Shown one piece after another: positions 6,349-12,500 of a stretch of DNA of 14,192 bases (the stretch's first letter is position 1; each line of letters opens with the position of its first letter). The stretch is from an uncultured Acidimicrobiaceae bacterium (GTDB lineage Bacteria > Actinomycetota > Acidimicrobiia > Acidimicrobiales > Microtrichaceae), in assembly GCA_937868025.1 (NCBI GenBank), contig CALMLJ010000196.1:1-14192 (forward strand). The letters run 5' to 3'. The notes beneath the pieces are model-generated. The model was not told the DNA's origin. It saw nothing but the letters and a program-made list of their open reading frames with translations, and searched no databases. The position numbers and the translations under genes are program-made.

Positions 6349-6552
6349 ATGTACATCTCCATGACACCTGTGGCGGCCGCGGGCGCGTCCGTGCTTGGGG
6401 TCGAACTGATCAGCTCCTCCACGGAGCGCAACCCGGGCGTCGCCGCGACGTTGACCGGGGCCAACTCACCGCTGCTCACCGCGGCGGGGTTCCTGCTCAT
6501 CGCGCTCGCCCTCGTGGCCGTGGCGTGGACGGCGAAGCACCCACGTCGATGA
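6349..6552 (+). CDS. Small single-TM protein with LPXTG-like C-terminal tail
   Basis: 67 residues, not recognised as a named family. Ala/Val/Ser-rich first half, then LTGANSPLLTAAG leading into a hydrophobic helix (about 44-61, FLLIALALVAVAW) and a basic end KHPRR. The order Thr-Gly, polar spacer, hydrophobic helix, basic tail is that of a sortase signal, but the pentapeptide is ATLTG rather than LPXTG or LAXTG, so it may instead be a plain tail-anchored protein. The start at 6349 is chosen for its GAGGA site. Its stop overlaps the glycosyltransferase start as ATGA, so the two are translationally coupled. By position it resembles the small partner subunits of polysaccharide synthases (for example PgaD), though no sequence likeness is claimed. 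Confidence 0.65.
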   Translation: MYISMTPVAAAGASVLGVELISSSTERNPGVAATLTGANSPLLTAAGFLLIALALVAVAWTAKHPRR

Positions 6553-8045
6553 TCCAGACCGCCATCGTCGTGGCGACCGCCCTGATCGTCGCGTACACGT
6601 TGGCGATGTACGTGAAGGGCCGGGGCAAGTCCGACGCGGACAGCGGCGCCGCCGACGGTTCGCCGTCCCCGGACCTGTCGTTCGTCTTCATGGTGCCGTG
6701 CCTCAACGAAGAGCTGGTGCTCGGCCGCACCATCGACCGCCTTCTGGCGATCGAGAGCGACCACCGCTTCGCCGTGATGGTGATCGACGACGGGTCGACC
6801 GACGGAACCGCGGCGGTCACCGAGTCGTACGACCCCGACCGTGTGTGGCTCTTCCAGCGGGTTGCGCCCAACGCCCGGCAGGGCAAGGGCGAGGCGCTCA
6901 ACGCCGCGTATCGCCACCTCCGCCAGCACGTGCTGACCGCCGGGCAATCGCCCGACGACGTCGTGGTCGCGGTCATGGACGCCGACGGCCGGCTCGACCC
7001 GCGGGCGCTCGACCTCGTCGCACCCCACTTCGCCGATCCTCGCCGGGCGTCGGTGCAGATCGGCGTCCGGATCCACAACGCGTCCGACCACGTCGTCGCA
7101 CGTCTCCAGGACATGGAGTTCGCGAGCTACACGGAGCTCTTCCAACGTGGCCGCTCCGCGCTGGGGTCGGCGGGGCTCGGCGGCAACGGCCAGTTCGCCC
7201 GGCTCAGCGCCCTCATGTCCCTCGGTGACGCGCCGTGGTCCGACTGCCTCACCGAGGACCTCGAGCTCGGCATCGAGTTCCTCCTGGGCGGTTGGACGAA
7301 CCGGTTCTGCCACGAGACCCACGTCAGCCAGCAGGGCATCGTCGAGATGCGACCGCTGATCAAGCAGCGGACGCGCTGGTTCCAGGGCCACCTGCAGTGC
7401 ACCCGGTTCATCGGCCGGATCCTGCGCTCGGACCTGCGTCCGTGGCCGAAGTTCGACCTGGCGTTCCACCTGGTGAACCCGCTCCTGATGCTGCTCTTGC
7501 AGACTGCGTCGTTGGTCTGGCTGGCGCGACTCGGCTGGTTGGTGGCCACCCAGCCCGCCGCCGACACGGTGATGATGTTCTCCGGCGTCCGTCCGGTGCT
7601 GCTGTACCTGCTGGCGTTCGGCCTCGCGCCCGTCGTCACCTTCGTGTACCTGCGCGCCGAGCCCAAGCTCGGCATCGGGGCCGGCATCGCGTTCGCCCAC
7701 CTCTACATCTTCTACGGGTACATGTGGTACTTCGCCGGCGTGCGGGCGACGGTGCGTCACTTCAGCCGGCGCCGCGGGTGGGCCAAGACCGCACGCACCA
7801 CCGGGACCGGCGACGAGGCTCGCCCGACCGGGTTCGACGTGTTGCCCTACCTCCCGGCATCGGTCCGCTGGTTCGCCCGGATCGCCGAGCCGCCGCCGAC
7901 ACCTGTGGCCCGTCGGACCGACGCCCTCATCGAGCTGGTGACGCTCGACGGCGACCCCATCGGTCGACTCGACGAACTGCTCGCCCACCGCCCGGCGGAA
8001 CTCCCCGCCGGACTTCCCGCCGAACGAGTCGGAGCGCTCCGATGA
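6549..8045 (+). CDS. Membrane glycosyltransferase family 2 (processive polysaccharide synthase-like, BcsA/PgaC type)
   Basis: 498 residues. TM helix 1 (about 4-22), then a cytosolic GT-A domain with MVPCLNEE, the nucleotide-binding DDGSTDGT (Asp80, Asp81), DADGR (Asp144, Asp146; metal/UDP-sugar), the catalytic base TED (Asp237) and the QRTRW acceptor motif (Gln273-Trp277, the QxxRW of processive synthases). Three or more C-terminal TM helices follow (about 310-415), then a roughly 85-residue cytosolic tail without a visible PilZ domain. It probably builds a beta-linked polymer from a nucleotide sugar and moves it across the membrane; the sugar is unknown. It starts in an ATGA overlap with the small TM protein and ends in another ATGA (8042-8045). 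GlcNAc is a guess based on the neighbouring deacetylase-fold proteins. Confidence 0.9.
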   Translation: MIQTAIVVATALIVAYTLAMYVKGRGKSDADSGAADGSPSPDLSFVFMVPCLNEELVLGRTIDRLLAIESDHRFAVMVIDDGSTDGTAAVTESYDPDRVWLFQRVAPNARQGKGEALNAAYRHLRQHVLTAGQSPDDVVVAVMDADGRLDPRALDLVAPHFADPRRASVQIGVRIHNASDHVVARLQDMEFASYTELFQRGRSALGSAGLGGNGQFARLSALMSLGDAPWSDCLTEDLELGIEFLLGGWTNRFCHETHVSQQGIVEMRPLIKQRTRWFQGHLQCTRFIGRILRSDLRPWPKFDLAFHLVNPLLMLLLQTASLVWLARLGWLVATQPAADTVMMFSGVRPVLLYLLAFGLAPVVTFVYLRAEPKLGIGAGIAFAHLYIFYGYMWYFAGVRATVRHFSRRRGWAKTARTTGTGDEARPTGFDVLPYLPASVRWFARIAEPPPTPVARRTDALIELVTLDGDPIGRLDELLAHRPAELPAGLPAERVGALR

Positions 8046-8083
8046 CCACACACCCCGAAACCCGATCCACGACCACCGAGACC

Positions 8084-8088
8084 AGGAG
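8084..8088 (+). promoter_or_regulatory. Ribosome binding site deciding the start of the first DUF2334 gene
   Basis: AGGAG lies 7 bases before the ATG at 8096. It favours this start over the in-frame ATG at 8042, which overlaps the glycosyltransferase stop and would add 18 Thr/Ser-rich residues ahead of the signal peptide. Confidence 0.6.
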
Positions 8089-8095
8089 TCCCGCA

Positions 8096-9709
8096 ATGAC
8101 GAATCAACCTCGGACCGTTCGGCCTCGAAAGATGGTGCGCCGCTCGATTCTGCTCGCACTGGCCGTCATCACCGCGACGTTCGGGATCGGACTCGCCGAG
8201 CCCGAGGCCGAGCGTGTCGCCGATGCGGCACCCCAGGCTGCCGCGCCGGCGGTGACGACGCTCGTGTTGTACGACTCGACGGGGCCGTACGCCTGGCTGG
8301 GCGACATCTACGCCGTGCAGACCGCCAACCTCGCCGGCCACTTCGGGACCGTGACCCGCAAGAAGGTCACCGCGTACACCAAGGGCGACATCGCCAAGTA
8401 CACCGCCACGATCTACGTCGGCTCGACTTACGACGAGCCGTTGCCCGCAGCGTTCCTGTCGGACGTGACGTCGGCCACGAAGCCGGTCATCTGGGTCGCT
8501 GACAACATCTGGCAACTGACCGCAGCGACCCCGACGTTCGCCGCCGACTACGGCTGGATGTGGTCCGGATACGACACCCGCCCGGTGTCGAAGGTCGCCT
8601 ACAAGGGCACGACCCTGACCCGCTCGCCGCTCAACAACGCCGGAATCATGAACTCGGTCGTCTACGACACCGCCAAGGCCAACGTGGTGGCGACTGCCGT
8701 CGCCGACGACGGCACCCAGTTCCCGTGGGCGATCCGCTCGAAGCGCCTCACCTACGTCGGCGAGAACCCCTACAGCTACATCAACGAGACCGACCGCTAC
8801 CTGGCCTGGTCGGACCTGCTGTTCGACGCCCTTGCCCCGCAGACTGCGGAGCGGCATCGGGCGATGATCCGCATCGAGGACGTCGGCCCGACGACCGATC
8901 CCACCCAGCTCCGCCAGATCGTCGACTACCTCTACAGCAAGAAGATCAAGTTCACGCTCGCCACCTACAGCTGGTACCGCGACCCGCGGGGCGTCAACAA
9001 CGGCGGCAAGGCCGTGAGCACGTACCTGTACCAGTCGCCGCAGCTGACGGCGGCCCTCCGGTACGCCCAGGCCCGCGGTGGCACGGTCATCCAGCACGGC
9101 CGGACCCACCAGCTCGACTCGCTGATCAACCCCTACGACGGCGTGTCGGCCAACGATTTCGAGTTCTACCGCGCCCATGTCGACGCAGCGACCGACGCCG
9201 TGGTCCTCGACGGGCCGGTCGCCAACGACTCGACCGCCAACGCGAAGGCGCGGATCCAGTCGGGCCGTACCGACTTCGCCCTCGCCCTCGTGTCGGTGTC
9301 GAACATCTTCGAGTTCCCGCACTACGCGGCGTCGGAGGCCGACTACCAGGCGGTGAAAGCGCTGAACCTGACGGCGTACGATCGGCGTCTGTACTTCCCC
9401 CGCAACGCCGCCGGGAAGGCCGACACGACCCGTCCGACCGGCCAGTTCTTCCCGTACGTCGTCACCGACGTGTACGGCACCAAGGTCATCCCGGAGAACA
9501 TGGGCAACTACGAGCCGGAGGCGTACAACCAGCACCCGGCGGTGCAGATCCCCGAGCTGGTGCAACGGGCCCGCACATCGCTCGTGGTCCGTGACGGCTT
9601 CGCGAGCTACTTCTACCACCCGTTCCTGGGCGTCGAACCGCTCAAGCAGCTCGTCGAGGGCGTGAACGCGATCGGGCGGTACACCTGGGTCGGGCCGAAC
9701 GACGTCTGA
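8096..9709 (+). CDS. Secreted DUF2334 polysaccharide deacetylase-like protein (copy A)
   Basis: 537 residues. A basic N-terminus (RPRKMVRRS) and hydrophobic helix (about 17-34) form a Sec signal peptide, with possible cleavage in the Ala-rich VADAAPQAAAP. An N-terminal alpha/beta domain (about 55-245) begins TLVLYDSTG. The DUF2334 NodB-like barrel follows with RIEDVGP (Asp262), QHGRTHQ (His334, His338), NPYDGVSANDFEFYRAH and the HYAAS motif (His409). Asp plus HxxxH resembles the metal triad of carbohydrate esterase 4/18 enzymes. Activity is therefore inferred to be N- or O-deacetylation of an extracytoplasmic glycan. It is coupled to the synthase upstream and overlaps the GH113-like gene by one base (TGATG). 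It is a clear paralogue of copy B two genes on. The alternative start is 8042. Confidence 0.85.
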   Translation: MTNQPRTVRPRKMVRRSILLALAVITATFGIGLAEPEAERVADAAPQAAAPAVTTLVLYDSTGPYAWLGDIYAVQTANLAGHFGTVTRKKVTAYTKGDIAKYTATIYVGSTYDEPLPAAFLSDVTSATKPVIWVADNIWQLTAATPTFAADYGWMWSGYDTRPVSKVAYKGTTLTRSPLNNAGIMNSVVYDTAKANVVATAVADDGTQFPWAIRSKRLTYVGENPYSYINETDRYLAWSDLLFDALAPQTAERHRAMIRIEDVGPTTDPTQLRQIVDYLYSKKIKFTLATYSWYRDPRGVNNGGKAVSTYLYQSPQLTAALRYAQARGGTVIQHGRTHQLDSLINPYDGVSANDFEFYRAHVDAATDAVVLDGPVANDSTANAKARIQSGRTDFALALVSVSNIFEFPHYAASEADYQAVKALNLTAYDRRLYFPRNAAGKADTTRPTGQFFPYVVTDVYGTKVIPENMGNYEPEAYNQHPAVQIPELVQRARTSLVVRDGFASYFYHPFLGVEPLKQLVEGVNAIGRYTWVGPNDV

Positions 9710-10776
9710 TGCCGTCGACGGCTCCCCGCCTCGTCGCGTTGATGGTGGCGTTCCTGCTCGCGGGCTGTTCCGGGTCGGACGCGGTGTCCGATCCGGATCC
9801 GGGACCCGGGGCGGGGAGCGCTCGGTCGGCGGGCGCGGTGCGGGAGTGGGACGGCGTGGCGTACCCGGTGTGGGAGGCGGAGGCCTATGCCGGGGCCGAG
9901 GCGACGACGGCGCTGGGTGAGATCGCGGCCACCGGCGCGAGCGCGGTCACGATCATCCCGACCTGGTACGTCGACGACACGTCGACGTCGTTGCCCCATC
10001 GTGACCCCGAGCAGACGGCGAGCGACGGCAGCTTGCGCGCCGCGATCGTCGAGGCGCACCGTGTGGGTTTGCGGGTCATCCTCAAGCCGCATGTCGACGT
10101 CGAGGACGACACCGATCGTGCCGAGATCGTGCCCGTCGACCCCGCGGCCTGGTTCGATCGCTACCGCGACCTCATGGTCGGCTACGCGAACCTCGCCACC
10201 GAGACCGGGGTGGAGATGCTCAGCGTCGGCACCGAACTGGCCGGCACCATGGATCGGCCCGCCGAGTGGGCCGACGTGATCGCAGCGATCCGCGCGGTCT
10301 ACAGCGGGCCACTCACGTACGCCGCGAACTTCGACGGCTACGCCGACGTCCCGTTCTGGGATCGTCTCGACGACATCGGCGTCGACGCGTACTTCGAGCT
10401 GTCGACCGAACCCACGACCGACGTGGACCGACTGGTGACCGCCTGGGGCCCCGTGCTCGACGAACTCGACGCGTTCGCGGCCGGTCTCGGCAAGCCGGTG
10501 ATCTTCACGGAGGCCGGATACGCCAGCCAGGTGGGGTCGACCACCCAGCCGTGGAACTGGGAGATCAGCGAGGAACGGTCCGACGCCGAACAGGCCGCCG
10601 GATACGAGGCCTTGTTCACGGCCGTCGCCGACCGTTCGTGGATCGACGGTGTGCAGTGGTGGATGTGGGACGACCTGGCCGACACCGGGGAGGACCAGGC
10701 CCTCGACTACACCCCGCACGGCAAGGCGGCCGAGCGGGTGCTGCGCTCGCAGTGGGCGGTCGGTGACGAACGCTGA
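9709..10776 (+). CDS. Lipoprotein glycoside hydrolase, GH113-like TIM barrel
   Basis: 355 residues. Lipoprotein signal MPSTAPRLVALMVAFLLAGC with lipobox LAGC (Cys20), then a Gly/Pro/Asp-rich linker. The TIM-barrel domain (about 45-350) carries GH113 hallmarks: VTIIPTWYVDD, LKPHVDVEDD, the acid/base candidate Glu176 in SVGTELAG, the nucleophile candidate Glu268 in IFTEAGYASQ, and the aromatic QWWMWDD near the end. Known GH113 members are retaining beta-mannanases, but this protein is divergent and its substrate is probably the polymer made by the cluster. It would be anchored on the outer face of the membrane. It begins in a TGATG overlap and ends in another, so it is translated by coupling; no Shine-Dalgarno is evident. 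Role by analogy with PgaB or PelA: trimming nascent polymer. Confidence 0.82.
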   Translation: MPSTAPRLVALMVAFLLAGCSGSDAVSDPDPGPGAGSARSAGAVREWDGVAYPVWEAEAYAGAEATTALGEIAATGASAVTIIPTWYVDDTSTSLPHRDPEQTASDGSLRAAIVEAHRVGLRVILKPHVDVEDDTDRAEIVPVDPAAWFDRYRDLMVGYANLATETGVEMLSVGTELAGTMDRPAEWADVIAAIRAVYSGPLTYAANFDGYADVPFWDRLDDIGVDAYFELSTEPTTDVDRLVTAWGPVLDELDAFAAGLGKPVIFTEAGYASQVGSTTQPWNWEISEERSDAEQAAGYEALFTAVADRSWIDGVQWWMWDDLADTGEDQALDYTPHGKAAERVLRSQWAVGDER

Positions 10777-12500
10777 TGCGGCGCGTCACCACGATGGCGG
10801 CGGTCGGTGTCGTGGCGGTCGTCGCTGCCGTGGTGCTGGGCGTCGGTGGGGGAGCCGATCCCCTCGCTCCGTCGGACGGCTCGTCGGCAGTCGTGCCGGA
10901 GTCGGGGCCCGGGGCGGCGTCCGCGTCGGCGTCGGTGTCGCCGACGACCACCCGCCCGGAACGGGCGGCGCTGCCGATGTTGGTGCTGTACGACACGTCG
11001 GGGGAGTGGTCGACGGTCGGCCAGACCGACGCCATCCTGTCGGCGAATCTGCTCGGACACTTCGGCCCGGTCACCCGTCTGCCGATCGGTGACTACACCG
11101 CCGGTATGGCGGCGTCCTTCGGCGGTGTGCTCTACGTGGGGACGACGTTCGACGAGCCGATCCCCACGGCGTTCCTCGACGACGTCGTCGGCGGGGCCAC
11201 CCCGATCGTGTGGGCGGGTCTCAACATCTGGCAGCTCGGGGACCGGCTGACCGCCGGCGGGTACGGCTTCACTCCCGGACTCCTCGACGCGCGCCCGATG
11301 GTGAAGGTGCGCTACGAGGGTGCCGAGTTCGACCGCGCCGCGTCCGGCGACTCCAACGAGGTCGTGACGCTGACCGTCGACAACCCGGCGGTGGCGACGA
11401 CGCTCGGCACGATCGTCGCCGAGGACGGCACGGAGTTCCCGTGGGGCGTACGCGCCCGCAACCTGACCTACCTCGCGGAATCGCCCTACACGTTTCTCTC
11501 CGAACGCGACCGCTACGTCGCCTGGGCCGACGTCCTCCTCGACGCCTTCACACCCGGCACCCCCGAACGACACCGAGCCCTGGTCCGGCTCGAGGACATC
11601 GGACCGGCCAGCGATCCGGTCCTCCTGCGGGCATCCATCGACGTCCTGGTGAAACGGCGGATTCCCTTCACGATGGCGGTCTACCCGTTGTACGCGGACC
11701 CGGCCGGCGTGCACGGCACCAAGTACGGCTCGAAGGGCATCCCGACGCTTCGGCTCGACCAGCGACCGAAGGTGGTCGCCGCCATCACCTACGGCCTCGA
11801 GCACGGCGGCACGATCGTGAGCCACGGGCTGACCCACCAGTACGGCAAGGTCGACAACCCCTACGACGGGGTGAGCGCCAACGACTTCGAGTTCTTCCGT
11901 GCCCACGTGGACCCGGCGACCGATGACGTCGTCCTCGACGGCCCCGTCGAGGAGGATTCCGTCGAGTGGGCCGCCGACCGGCTGCGCACGGCGCGCACGA
12001 TGCTCGCGAAGGCAGGGATTCCGCTCGACGAGGTCCGGATGTTCGAACCGGCGCACTACACCGCCTCCGACGCCACCTATCGGGCCATCGGTGACGTCTA
12101 CGCGGGCCTCAACAGCGGCGGACCGGCAACGAGGTTCGACCGCGGGATGTACTTCGCCCCGGGCGAGTCGGGCGATCTCGACGCCGACCACCCGATCGGG
12201 CAATTCTTCCCCTTCGCGGTGCGTGACGTCTACGGGCACCTCGTCGTCCCCGAGAACCTCGGCAACGTCATCGAGGTCGGGTACAACAACAACGACCCTC
12301 GGACGCCCGAGGAGATCGTCGAGAACGCACGGCGCAGCCGCGTGGTCCGCGACAACGTCGTCGGCTTCTTCTTCCACCCGTACCTCGACGCAGATCTCTT
12401 GGCCGAGACCGTCGACGGCATCGTCGCAGCGGGGTACGAGTTCGTGCCGTCCACCTCGGTGACGACGGGGTGGGACATGCCGAGCAGTTCGCCGCCGTGA
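10776..12500 (+). CDS. Membrane-anchored DUF2334 polysaccharide deacetylase-like protein (copy B)
   Basis: 574 residues. The N-terminal hydrophobic helix (about 7-25, AAVGVVAVVAAVVLGVGGG) has no obvious signal peptidase site, so a membrane anchor is likely. A roughly 40-residue Ser/Ala/Pro/Thr linker (about 27-66) follows. The rest aligns along its length with copy A: MLVLYDTSG, VWAGLNIWQL, RLEDIGP (Asp274), SHGLTHQ (His350, His354), NPYDGVSANDFEFFRAH and HYTAS (His427). The putative metal residues are conserved in both copies, so neither looks dead. The start is in a TGATG overlap with the GH113-like gene. Two deacetylase-like enzymes, one exported and one tethered, flank the glycosidase; division of labour (for example membrane-proximal versus wall) is inference. 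Confidence 0.85.
   Translation: MRRVTTMAAVGVVAVVAAVVLGVGGGADPLAPSDGSSAVVPESGPGAASASASVSPTTTRPERAALPMLVLYDTSGEWSTVGQTDAILSANLLGHFGPVTRLPIGDYTAGMAASFGGVLYVGTTFDEPIPTAFLDDVVGGATPIVWAGLNIWQLGDRLTAGGYGFTPGLLDARPMVKVRYEGAEFDRAASGDSNEVVTLTVDNPAVATTLGTIVAEDGTEFPWGVRARNLTYLAESPYTFLSERDRYVAWADVLLDAFTPGTPERHRALVRLEDIGPASDPVLLRASIDVLVKRRIPFTMAVYPLYADPAGVHGTKYGSKGIPTLRLDQRPKVVAAITYGLEHGGTIVSHGLTHQYGKVDNPYDGVSANDFEFFRAHVDPATDDVVLDGPVEEDSVEWAADRLRTARTMLAKAGIPLDEVRMFEPAHYTASDATYRAIGDVYAGLNSGGPATRFDRGMYFAPGESGDLDADHPIGQFFPFAVRDVYGHLVVPENLGNVIEVGYNNNDPRTPEEIVENARRSRVVRDNVVGFFFHPYLDADLLAETVDGIVAAGYEFVPSTSVTTGWDMPSSSPP

What the first reader, a model, noticed from the sequence alone, without database searches (positions are those of the whole stretch)
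6349..12500. Five-gene coupled exopolysaccharide module: small TM protein, GT2 synthase, two DUF2334 proteins, GH113-like lipoprotein
Every junction is an overlap (ATGA at 6549 and 8042, TGATG at 9709 and 10776), so the gene products are probably needed together. The logic synthase + deacetylase-fold + glycoside hydrolase + small membrane partner matches PNAG (pga/ica) and Pel systems, but the families differ: DUF2334 in place of the usual CE4 enzyme, and a GH113-like barrel in place of GH153/GH166. I know of no characterised system with this composition. Motifs are seen; function is inferred from family and order.
Basis: partly seen in the sequence, partly recalled or inferred. Interest (0 to 1): 0.75.

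Follow-up and report, generated by a model that had tools for sequence, protein, structure and literature searches.

The report
Probable ManNAc exopolysaccharide gene module
Five tightly packed bacterial genes probably build, trim and de-acetylate a slime sugar polymer made of N-acetylmannosamine, a rarely studied kind of biofilm material, and they suggest a natural substrate for a group of enzymes that so far have none.

Summary
Five overlapping genes (6349-12500) encode a 67-aa membrane protein, a GT2 synthase, a DUF2334 protein, a GH113 lipoprotein and a second DUF2334 protein; all junctions check out. The arrangement is not unique to this genome. In the best 80 of 345 GT2 loci, DUF2334 lies within 5 kb in 69, a WecB-type UDP-GlcNAc 2-epimerase in 59 and GH113 in 17; GT2 and DUF2334 are fused in 7. 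A small membrane ORF precedes GT2 in 47 of 77 sources.

The epimerase points to UDP-ManNAc: in 5 of 9 genomes there is one copy, each time beside this GT2. My best reading is a ManNAc-based exopolysaccharide: GT2 polymerises it, DUF2334 de-N-acetylates it, GH113 cuts it. The window itself holds no epimerase, and with GH113 as bait the linkage is rare.

PNAG and Pel membership fail. The closest precedent is a C. difficile locus (GT2, BcsB, GH113, WecB, deacetylase) predicted in print to make a deacetylated ManNAc polymer (PMC7710045). So this is a new variant of a predicted, uncharacterised kind that would give orphan GH113 enzymes a candidate substrate. No biochemistry supports the sugar yet.

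The parts
6349..6552 (+). 67-aa single-TM protein, conserved partner directly upstream of the synthase
   Evidence: 4 related clusters, 63-99%; small TM ORF before GT2 in 47 of 77 sources, window included; 67 of 573 before other called genes; 99 of 1580 random places
6549..8045 (+). GT2 membrane synthase; D80D81, D144xD146, T235E236D237, Q273xxR276W277
   Evidence: predicted fold like hyaluronan and cellulose synthases and the mannosyltransferase PcManGT
8042..9709 (+). Secreted DUF2334 protein: deacetylase fold (about 270-555) with E279D280/H352/H356/H526, after an N-terminal half of uncertain fold (ThuA-like proteins are among the Foldseek hits)
9709..10776 (+). GH113 lipoprotein (LAGC lipobox), putative catalytic Glu176 and Glu268
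10776..12500 (+). Second DUF2334 protein, 45% identical to the first, not its closest relative

Best explanation
The five genes are an operon for a synthase-dependent exopolysaccharide whose backbone is probably N-acetylmannosamine (perhaps beta-1,4). The GT2 protein, with the small membrane protein as partner, polymerises UDP-ManNAc and pushes the chain through the membrane. The two secreted DUF2334 proteins remove some N-acetyl groups outside. The GH113 lipoprotein cuts the chain or sets its length. UDP-ManNAc comes from a WecB epimerase, encoded beside the synthase in most of the relatives fetched and, for this genome, presumably elsewhere. Shown: gene order, families, catalytic motifs, recurrent co-occurrence, fusion of GT2 with DUF2334 and epimerase linkage in relatives. 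Inferred: the sugar, the linkage, each enzyme's action, and the role of the small protein.
Confidence: 0.58

Rival explanations
1. The polymer is a beta-mannan made from GDP-mannose; GH113 is an ordinary mannanase and DUF2334 removes O-acetyl groups.
For: GH113 activities known so far are on beta-1,4-mannans, one clade-3 enzyme (Ca. Acetothermus) among them; VIA's best match of the GT2 model is a mannosyltransferase.
Against: The commonest neighbour besides DUF2334 is a WecB epimerase, which makes no mannan precursor; but only 7 of the 26 other recurrent neighbour clusters were scanned with Pfam, so mannose genes are not excluded. The one Streptomyces GH113 tested in PMC9032380 (clade 3) had no mannan activity.
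Confidence: 0.17
2. The polymer is PNAG-like: GT2 uses UDP-GlcNAc as in pga/ica.
For: TIGR03937 PgaC_IcaA is hit at 3.5e-20; same overall logic of synthase, deacetylase, hydrolase and small partner.
Against: 72.3 bits against a cut-off of 422.3; GH113 in place of a PNAG hydrolase; linked epimerase in relatives.
Confidence: 0.08
3. The GT2 is a non-processive transferase that makes a glycolipid or decorates a carrier; the other genes act on something else.
For: Some relatives are named 1,2-diacylglycerol 3-beta-glucosyltransferase by a source; PcManGT fold match.
Against: QxxRW signature and hyaluronan-synthase-like fold; one open frame with a polysaccharide-deacetylase-like domain in 7 of 80 loci.
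Confidence: 0.09
4. GH113 plus the second DUF2334 is a scavenging pair for foreign mannan, lately inserted next to a synthase-DUF2334 pair.
For: The second DUF2334 is not the sister of the first (long branch); GH113 is rare in the sampled class (1 of 296 over cut-off); GH113 often occurs without this synthase.
Against: Same overlapping gene row; GH113 lies with the synthase in 17 of 80 loci and on a Streptomyces plasmid; no sugar transporter or second hydrolase among the window ORFs scanned.
Confidence: 0.08

Closest known systems
C. difficile 630 BcsA/B-like locus with GH113, WecB and CE4-like deacetylase (predicted, PMC7710045)
   Same: GT2 synthase, GH113, deacetylase; ManNAc-rich, partly deacetylated polymer proposed by its authors
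   Different: It has a BcsB-like protein and WecB; the window has neither, but a small TM protein and two DUF2334 genes. Sequences were not compared here
B. subtilis ydaJKLMN exopolysaccharide operon
   Same: Relatives of P0002 are named YdaL by a source; YdaM is a putative glycosyltransferase; a secreted polysaccharide is made
   Different: YdaJ, a putative glycosyl hydrolase, where GH113 is here; c-di-GMP receptor YdaK; YdaN. Sequences were not compared
Listeria pssA-E (ManNAc-Gal polymer) with PssZ
   Same: Gram-positive ManNAc polymer with its own hydrolase
   Different: Hydrolase is GH126/GH8-like; c-di-GMP receptor; gene-level homology not tested
E. coli NfrB-NfrA-YbcH with WecB (N4 glycan receptor)
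   Same: GT2 with DxD/TED/QxxRW and WecB dependence; one related cluster carries DUF2334
   Different: P0001 only distantly similar to NfrB; no MshEN domain in P0001, no NfrA
pga/ica PNAG systems
   Same: Logic: synthase, small partner, deacetylase, hydrolase
   Different: Synthase below the equivalog cut-off; DUF2334 and GH113 in place of the usual families
Pel (PelA)
   Same: PelA is the first Foldseek hit of the DUF2334 model (E 1.5e-10, TM 0.44)
   Different: GH113 instead of GH166; no PelF or PelG among the window ORFs scanned

Membership tests
GH113 (PF22612) | Pfam model over gathering score | tested here: met
   199.3 bits, cut-off 27
GH113 (PF22612) | Two catalytic glutamates | tested here: met
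   E176 and E268 align with Glu151 and Glu231 of 4cd6 (counted along) and both columns are Glu in 18 of 18; the roles of the 4cd6 residues are recalled
GH113 (PF22612) | Beta-1,4-mannan activity | not testable with these tools
   -
DUF2334 / CE4-like deacetylase fold | Metal-site motif Asp-His-His | tested here: met
   D280, H352, H356 invariant in 26 of 26 rows; deacetylase folds matched
DUF2334 / CE4-like deacetylase fold | Pfam DUF2334 over gathering score | tested here: met
   154.2 and 136.3 bits, cut-off 26
Processive GT2 synthase | DxD, TED, QxxRW | tested here: met
   invariant in 23 rows
PNAG pga/ica | PgaC/IcaA equivalog (TIGR03937) | tested here: not met
   72.3 bits, cut-off 422.3
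PNAG pga/ica | Deacetylase of Pfam's CE4 polysaccharide-deacetylase family and PgaB-type hydrolase | tested here: not met
   P0002 and P0004 match DUF2334 only, P0003 matches GH113 only, at E 0.1
Pel | PelA with its GH166 domain, with PelF and PelG in the same cluster | tested here: not met
   the module's proteins match GT2, DUF2334 and GH113; no such gene among the other window ORFs scanned
Nfr / N4 glycan receptor | NfrB-type synthase with MshEN | tested here: not met
   E 0.04 with NfrB; no MshEN in P0001
Predicted ManNAc locus of PMC7710045 | GT2 synthase, GH113 and CE4-like deacetylase together | tested here: met
Predicted ManNAc locus of PMC7710045 | WecB epimerase in the locus | tested here: not met
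   none found in the window; present in 59 of 80 relatives
ydaJKLMN / pss | Orthology of GT2 and DUF2334 to YdaM and YdaL | not tested
   Bacillus sequences were not fetched; only source names
XrtP-associated glycosyltransferase (NF053846) | Score over equivalog cut-off | tested here: not met
   302.4 bits, cut-off 520

The most novel reading that the evidence does not exclude
An unrecognised class of ManNAc exopolysaccharide machinery is spread across Actinomycetota, in which P0002-like DUF2334 proteins are the poly-ManNAc deacetylases, the synthase-linked Actinobacterial GH113 enzymes are poly-ManN(Ac) hydrolases rather than mannanases, and a 60-100 aa membrane protein is an obligate synthase partner.
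Probability: 0.38. Interest if true: 0.75.

Novelty: new variant of a known kind. Interest (0 to 1): 0.55.

Why it matters
ManNAc polymers are known from few bacteria and their enzymes are mostly uncharacterised. A widespread cluster with a linked epimerase, a deacetylase-fold family of unknown function and a hydrolase family with orphan members makes three functions testable at once. PMC9032380 found no activity for the one Streptomyces clade-3 GH113 it tested or for any of seven soluble clade-5 enzymes, and suggested biofilm building for clade 5 because of nearby GT2 genes. Poly-ManNAc is a concrete candidate substrate.

Tried and rejected
Thr before the acid/base (GTE, against Cys in 4cd6 and 7dv7) as a mark of polymer-linked GH113: present in 18 of 18 linked enzymes, but also in most Actinobacterial GH113 without the linkage, so it is a lineage mark, not evidence of substrate.

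GH113 as bait: 14 of 396 Actinomycetota genomes matched, 11 over cut-off. One of the 11 is the already known G004. Nine places were read at 12-20 kb and none has this family's GT2 or DUF2334; one (L134) has an epimerase. The two hits of G055 were seen only in about 3.7 kb. Other GT2 kinds were not looked for there.

DUF2334 as bait: 48 of 198 genomes matched, 29 over cut-off, 5 with full-length domain matches. Of those 5, three sit with GT2 and epimerase (G004, L167, L168) and two do not (L166, L169). Seven places with a partial domain match (L170-L176) showed no GT2 or epimerase, and my P0002-based profile did not find their DUF2334 at all (nor that of L169). So the linkage belongs to P0002-like proteins, not to the Pfam family as a whole. 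The other hits over cut-off were not read.

Recent local duplication of DUF2334: rejected, because the two copies fall in different parts of the tree (quick method, long branch, so the place of P0004 is unsure).

NfrB orthology of P0001: rejected. Viral contigs: no relatives. Rfam: no match at gathering score in the window. Sequence search of the PDB with P0001, P0002 or alignment A2: no relative. A first test for small upstream ORFs could not place 37 of 81 synthases and was replaced.

Literature: DUF2334 occurs in 1 paper of the library (listing only); DUF2334 with polysaccharide and glycosyltransferase in none; Listeria with PssA, PssB and PssC in none; XrtP with exosortase in none. GH113 with exopolysaccharide gave 10 papers, of which I opened PMC7710045 only. 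GH113 + deacetylase + 2-epimerase + glycosyltransferase gave 1, the same paper. Subscription papers are mostly absent from the library.

Full report
WHAT IS THERE. The window has five overlapping plus-strand genes. Frames and junctions were read directly: 6349-6552, 6549-8045, 8042-9709, 9709-10776, 10776-12500, with ATGA at 6549 and 8042 and TGATG at 9707 and 10774. Third-position GC is 0.87-0.92 in all five. Pfam gives GT2, DUF2334, GH113 and DUF2334 for the four large proteins, all over cut-off; the 67-aa protein has no family. That small protein is conserved: besides itself, four database clusters match it over its whole length at 99, 96, 72 and 63%. By eye, the first DUF2334 protein starts with a signal-peptide-like stretch, the second with a short hydrophobic start, and GH113 has a LAGC lipobox (sequences), so all three probably act outside the membrane. 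Upstream lie a radical-SAM/DUF512 protein, the GTPase Der and a SpoIIE phosphatase; downstream a carboxyl transferase. None of these belongs obviously to the module.

THE NEIGHBOURHOOD RECURS. A scan of one genome per species with the GT2 alignment confirmed 345 stretches; the best 80 were kept. Profile searches on their six-frame ORFs, counting only hits within 5 kb of the GT2, give DUF2334 in 69, WecB-type epimerase in 59 (PF02350 checked on two), a PF06439-like secreted protein in 53 (checked on one) and GH113 in 17 of 80; on the GT2's own strand 57, 53, 45 and 16. The full set of four occurs in 13, and DUF2334 + epimerase + GH113 without the PF06439 protein in 3. In 7 loci DUF2334 and GT2 share one open frame; Pfam places both domains in the one of L036. 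A Streptomyces plasmid has GT2, epimerase, PF06439-like protein, DUF2334 and GH113 together. A small single-TM ORF precedes the GT2 in 47 of 77 sources (80 loci and the window, 4 dropped because the predicted synthase start lay within 250 bases of the start of the stretch), against 67 of 573 before other called genes and 99 of 1580 random places. These loci were chosen with GT2 as bait. With GH113 or DUF2334 as bait the linkage is much weaker: GH113 at 0 of 9 further places read, DUF2334 at 3 of 5 full-length and 0 of 7 partial matches (details under Tried and rejected). In the class of G001 (the genome of L001, Microthrixaceae; that the window belongs to it is inferred from its nearest relatives) 16 of 296 genomes have DUF2334 over cut-off and 1 of 296 has GH113 over cut-off, so the window's combination is rare among its likely relatives.

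WHY MANNAC. WecB makes UDP-ManNAc from UDP-GlcNAc (stated in PMC8669469). In 9 genomes behind the loci the epimerase occurs 1-3 times. Five genomes (G001, G002, G003, G004, G662) have one copy, and by coordinates it lies beside this GT2 in all five; in G662 (locus L016) there is no DUF2334 nearby. In G008 two DUF2334 genes on different contigs each have an epimerase within 3 kb. Several of these genomes are MAGs and may be incomplete. A second, only distantly similar synthase supports the DUF2334-ManNAc link: on a Comamonadaceae plasmid DUF2334 lies between an NfrB relative (40% identical to E. coli NfrB) with a small protein, and an NfrA relative, with wecB upstream and a YbcH-family DUF4434 gene downstream. 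This is one example; of the two other plasmid hits, one is the Streptomyces cluster and one (Burkholderia vietnamiensis) shows DUF2334 without a synthase. The E. coli Nfr polymer is proposed to contain ManNAc because WecB, alone of the ECA pathway, is needed (PMC8669472, passages; PMC8669469, passages and section 11). The one earlier description of GT2 + GH113 + WecB + deacetylase that I found is the C. difficile locus in PMC7710045 (section 12 read), whose authors proposed a partially deacetylated ManNAc-rich polymer. Listeria makes beta-1,4-ManNAc decorated with galactose (PMC5422440 and PMC5039582, passages); its hydrolase PssZ is placed in GH126 (PMC7479077, passages).

HOW IT PROBABLY WORKS. 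UDP-ManNAc is polymerised and translocated by the GT2 with its small partner; DUF2334 de-N-acetylates the emerging chain (in 7 relatives as a fused domain, which suggests action at the exit); GH113, anchored as a lipoprotein, cuts the chain. Sugar, linkage and every catalytic step are inferred. The two DUF2334 copies are 45% identical and fall in different parts of the tree: P0002 with metagenome relatives and with L001 and L002, P0004 on a long branch elsewhere, weakly with L054, L056 and L062 (quick method). The GH113 joins a supported clade (97/96) of 17 polymer-linked and 2 other Actinobacterial enzymes, apart from the solved mannanases; two linked enzymes (L021, L056) fall outside that clade, so the linkage needs at least two changes on the tree. 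GH113 and the second DUF2334 may therefore have joined an older GT2-DUF2334 pair, possibly to handle differently acetylated chains.

KNOWN OR NEW. PNAG and Pel membership fail on tested features; NfrB orthology fails; yda and pss orthology were not tested. For the yda operon I saw passages of PMC5422440 and PMC13274460. The kind (ManNAc polymer synthase cluster with GH113) has been predicted in print once as far as my searches reach, and not characterised there. The Actinobacterial form, the small partner, the GT2-DUF2334 fusion, the tandem DUF2334 and the Nfr-DUF2334 cluster did not turn up in my searches. PMC9032380 (outline, passages, section 8 and part 1 of section 4) shows that the one tested Streptomyces clade-3 GH113 and all seven soluble clade-5 enzymes had no activity on the glycans tried, while another clade-3 enzyme (Ca. 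Acetothermus) is a mannanase. That fits an unusual substrate but does not show one. Which of those clades P0003 belongs to was not tested.

LIMITS. The window's genome is not held, so its epimerase could not be sought. Counts lean on the 80 best of 345 loci and include short contigs. Gene calls in the loci are stop-to-stop frames found by profiles built here. Only 7 of 26 other recurrent neighbour clusters were scanned with Pfam. Structure models show fold, not activity.

Noticed in passing
L117:3722-12746: Comamonadaceae plasmid CP099603.1: wecB, NfrB-like synthase, small protein, DUF2334, NfrA-like TPR protein, DUF4434 (YbcH family) in a row; links DUF2334 to the Nfr polysaccharide.
   Followed up: partly
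window:6349-6552; L002:1346-1600; L039:7352-7804; L014:7091-7357; P0010: Several of the small upstream proteins carry LPXTG/LAXTG-like words before the TM (LAFTG, LAATG, LPFTG, LATTG), as in sortase signals; the window's own has only a weak look-alike.
   Followed up: no
L134:8236-11515: A GH113 gene next to a WecB epimerase without the GT2 or DUF2334 of this family within the 20 kb read: perhaps another ManNAc cluster with a different synthase.
   Followed up: no
L013:12548-13261 and 52 other loci: A secreted about 240-aa PF06439-like (3-keto-disaccharide hydrolase / LamG-like) protein recurs beside the synthase; not found in the window.
   Followed up: partly
L001:14424-15611 (minus): A secreted about 395-aa protein without any Pfam match recurs in 9 of the 80 loci; it could fill the hydrolase slot there.
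   Followed up: no
L116:4477-15270: Burkholderia vietnamiensis plasmid with a long DUF2334 gene between diguanylate cyclase genes but no synthase annotated nearby.
   Followed up: no
window:6549-8045: Best NCBIfam match of the GT2 is the XrtP-associated glycosyltransferase (302 bits, cut-off 520): an exosortase-linked relative may exist.
   Followed up: no
window:1-2225 (minus): LytB/IspH (cut by the window's end) and an alpha/beta-hydrolase-like gene on the minus strand.
   Followed up: partly
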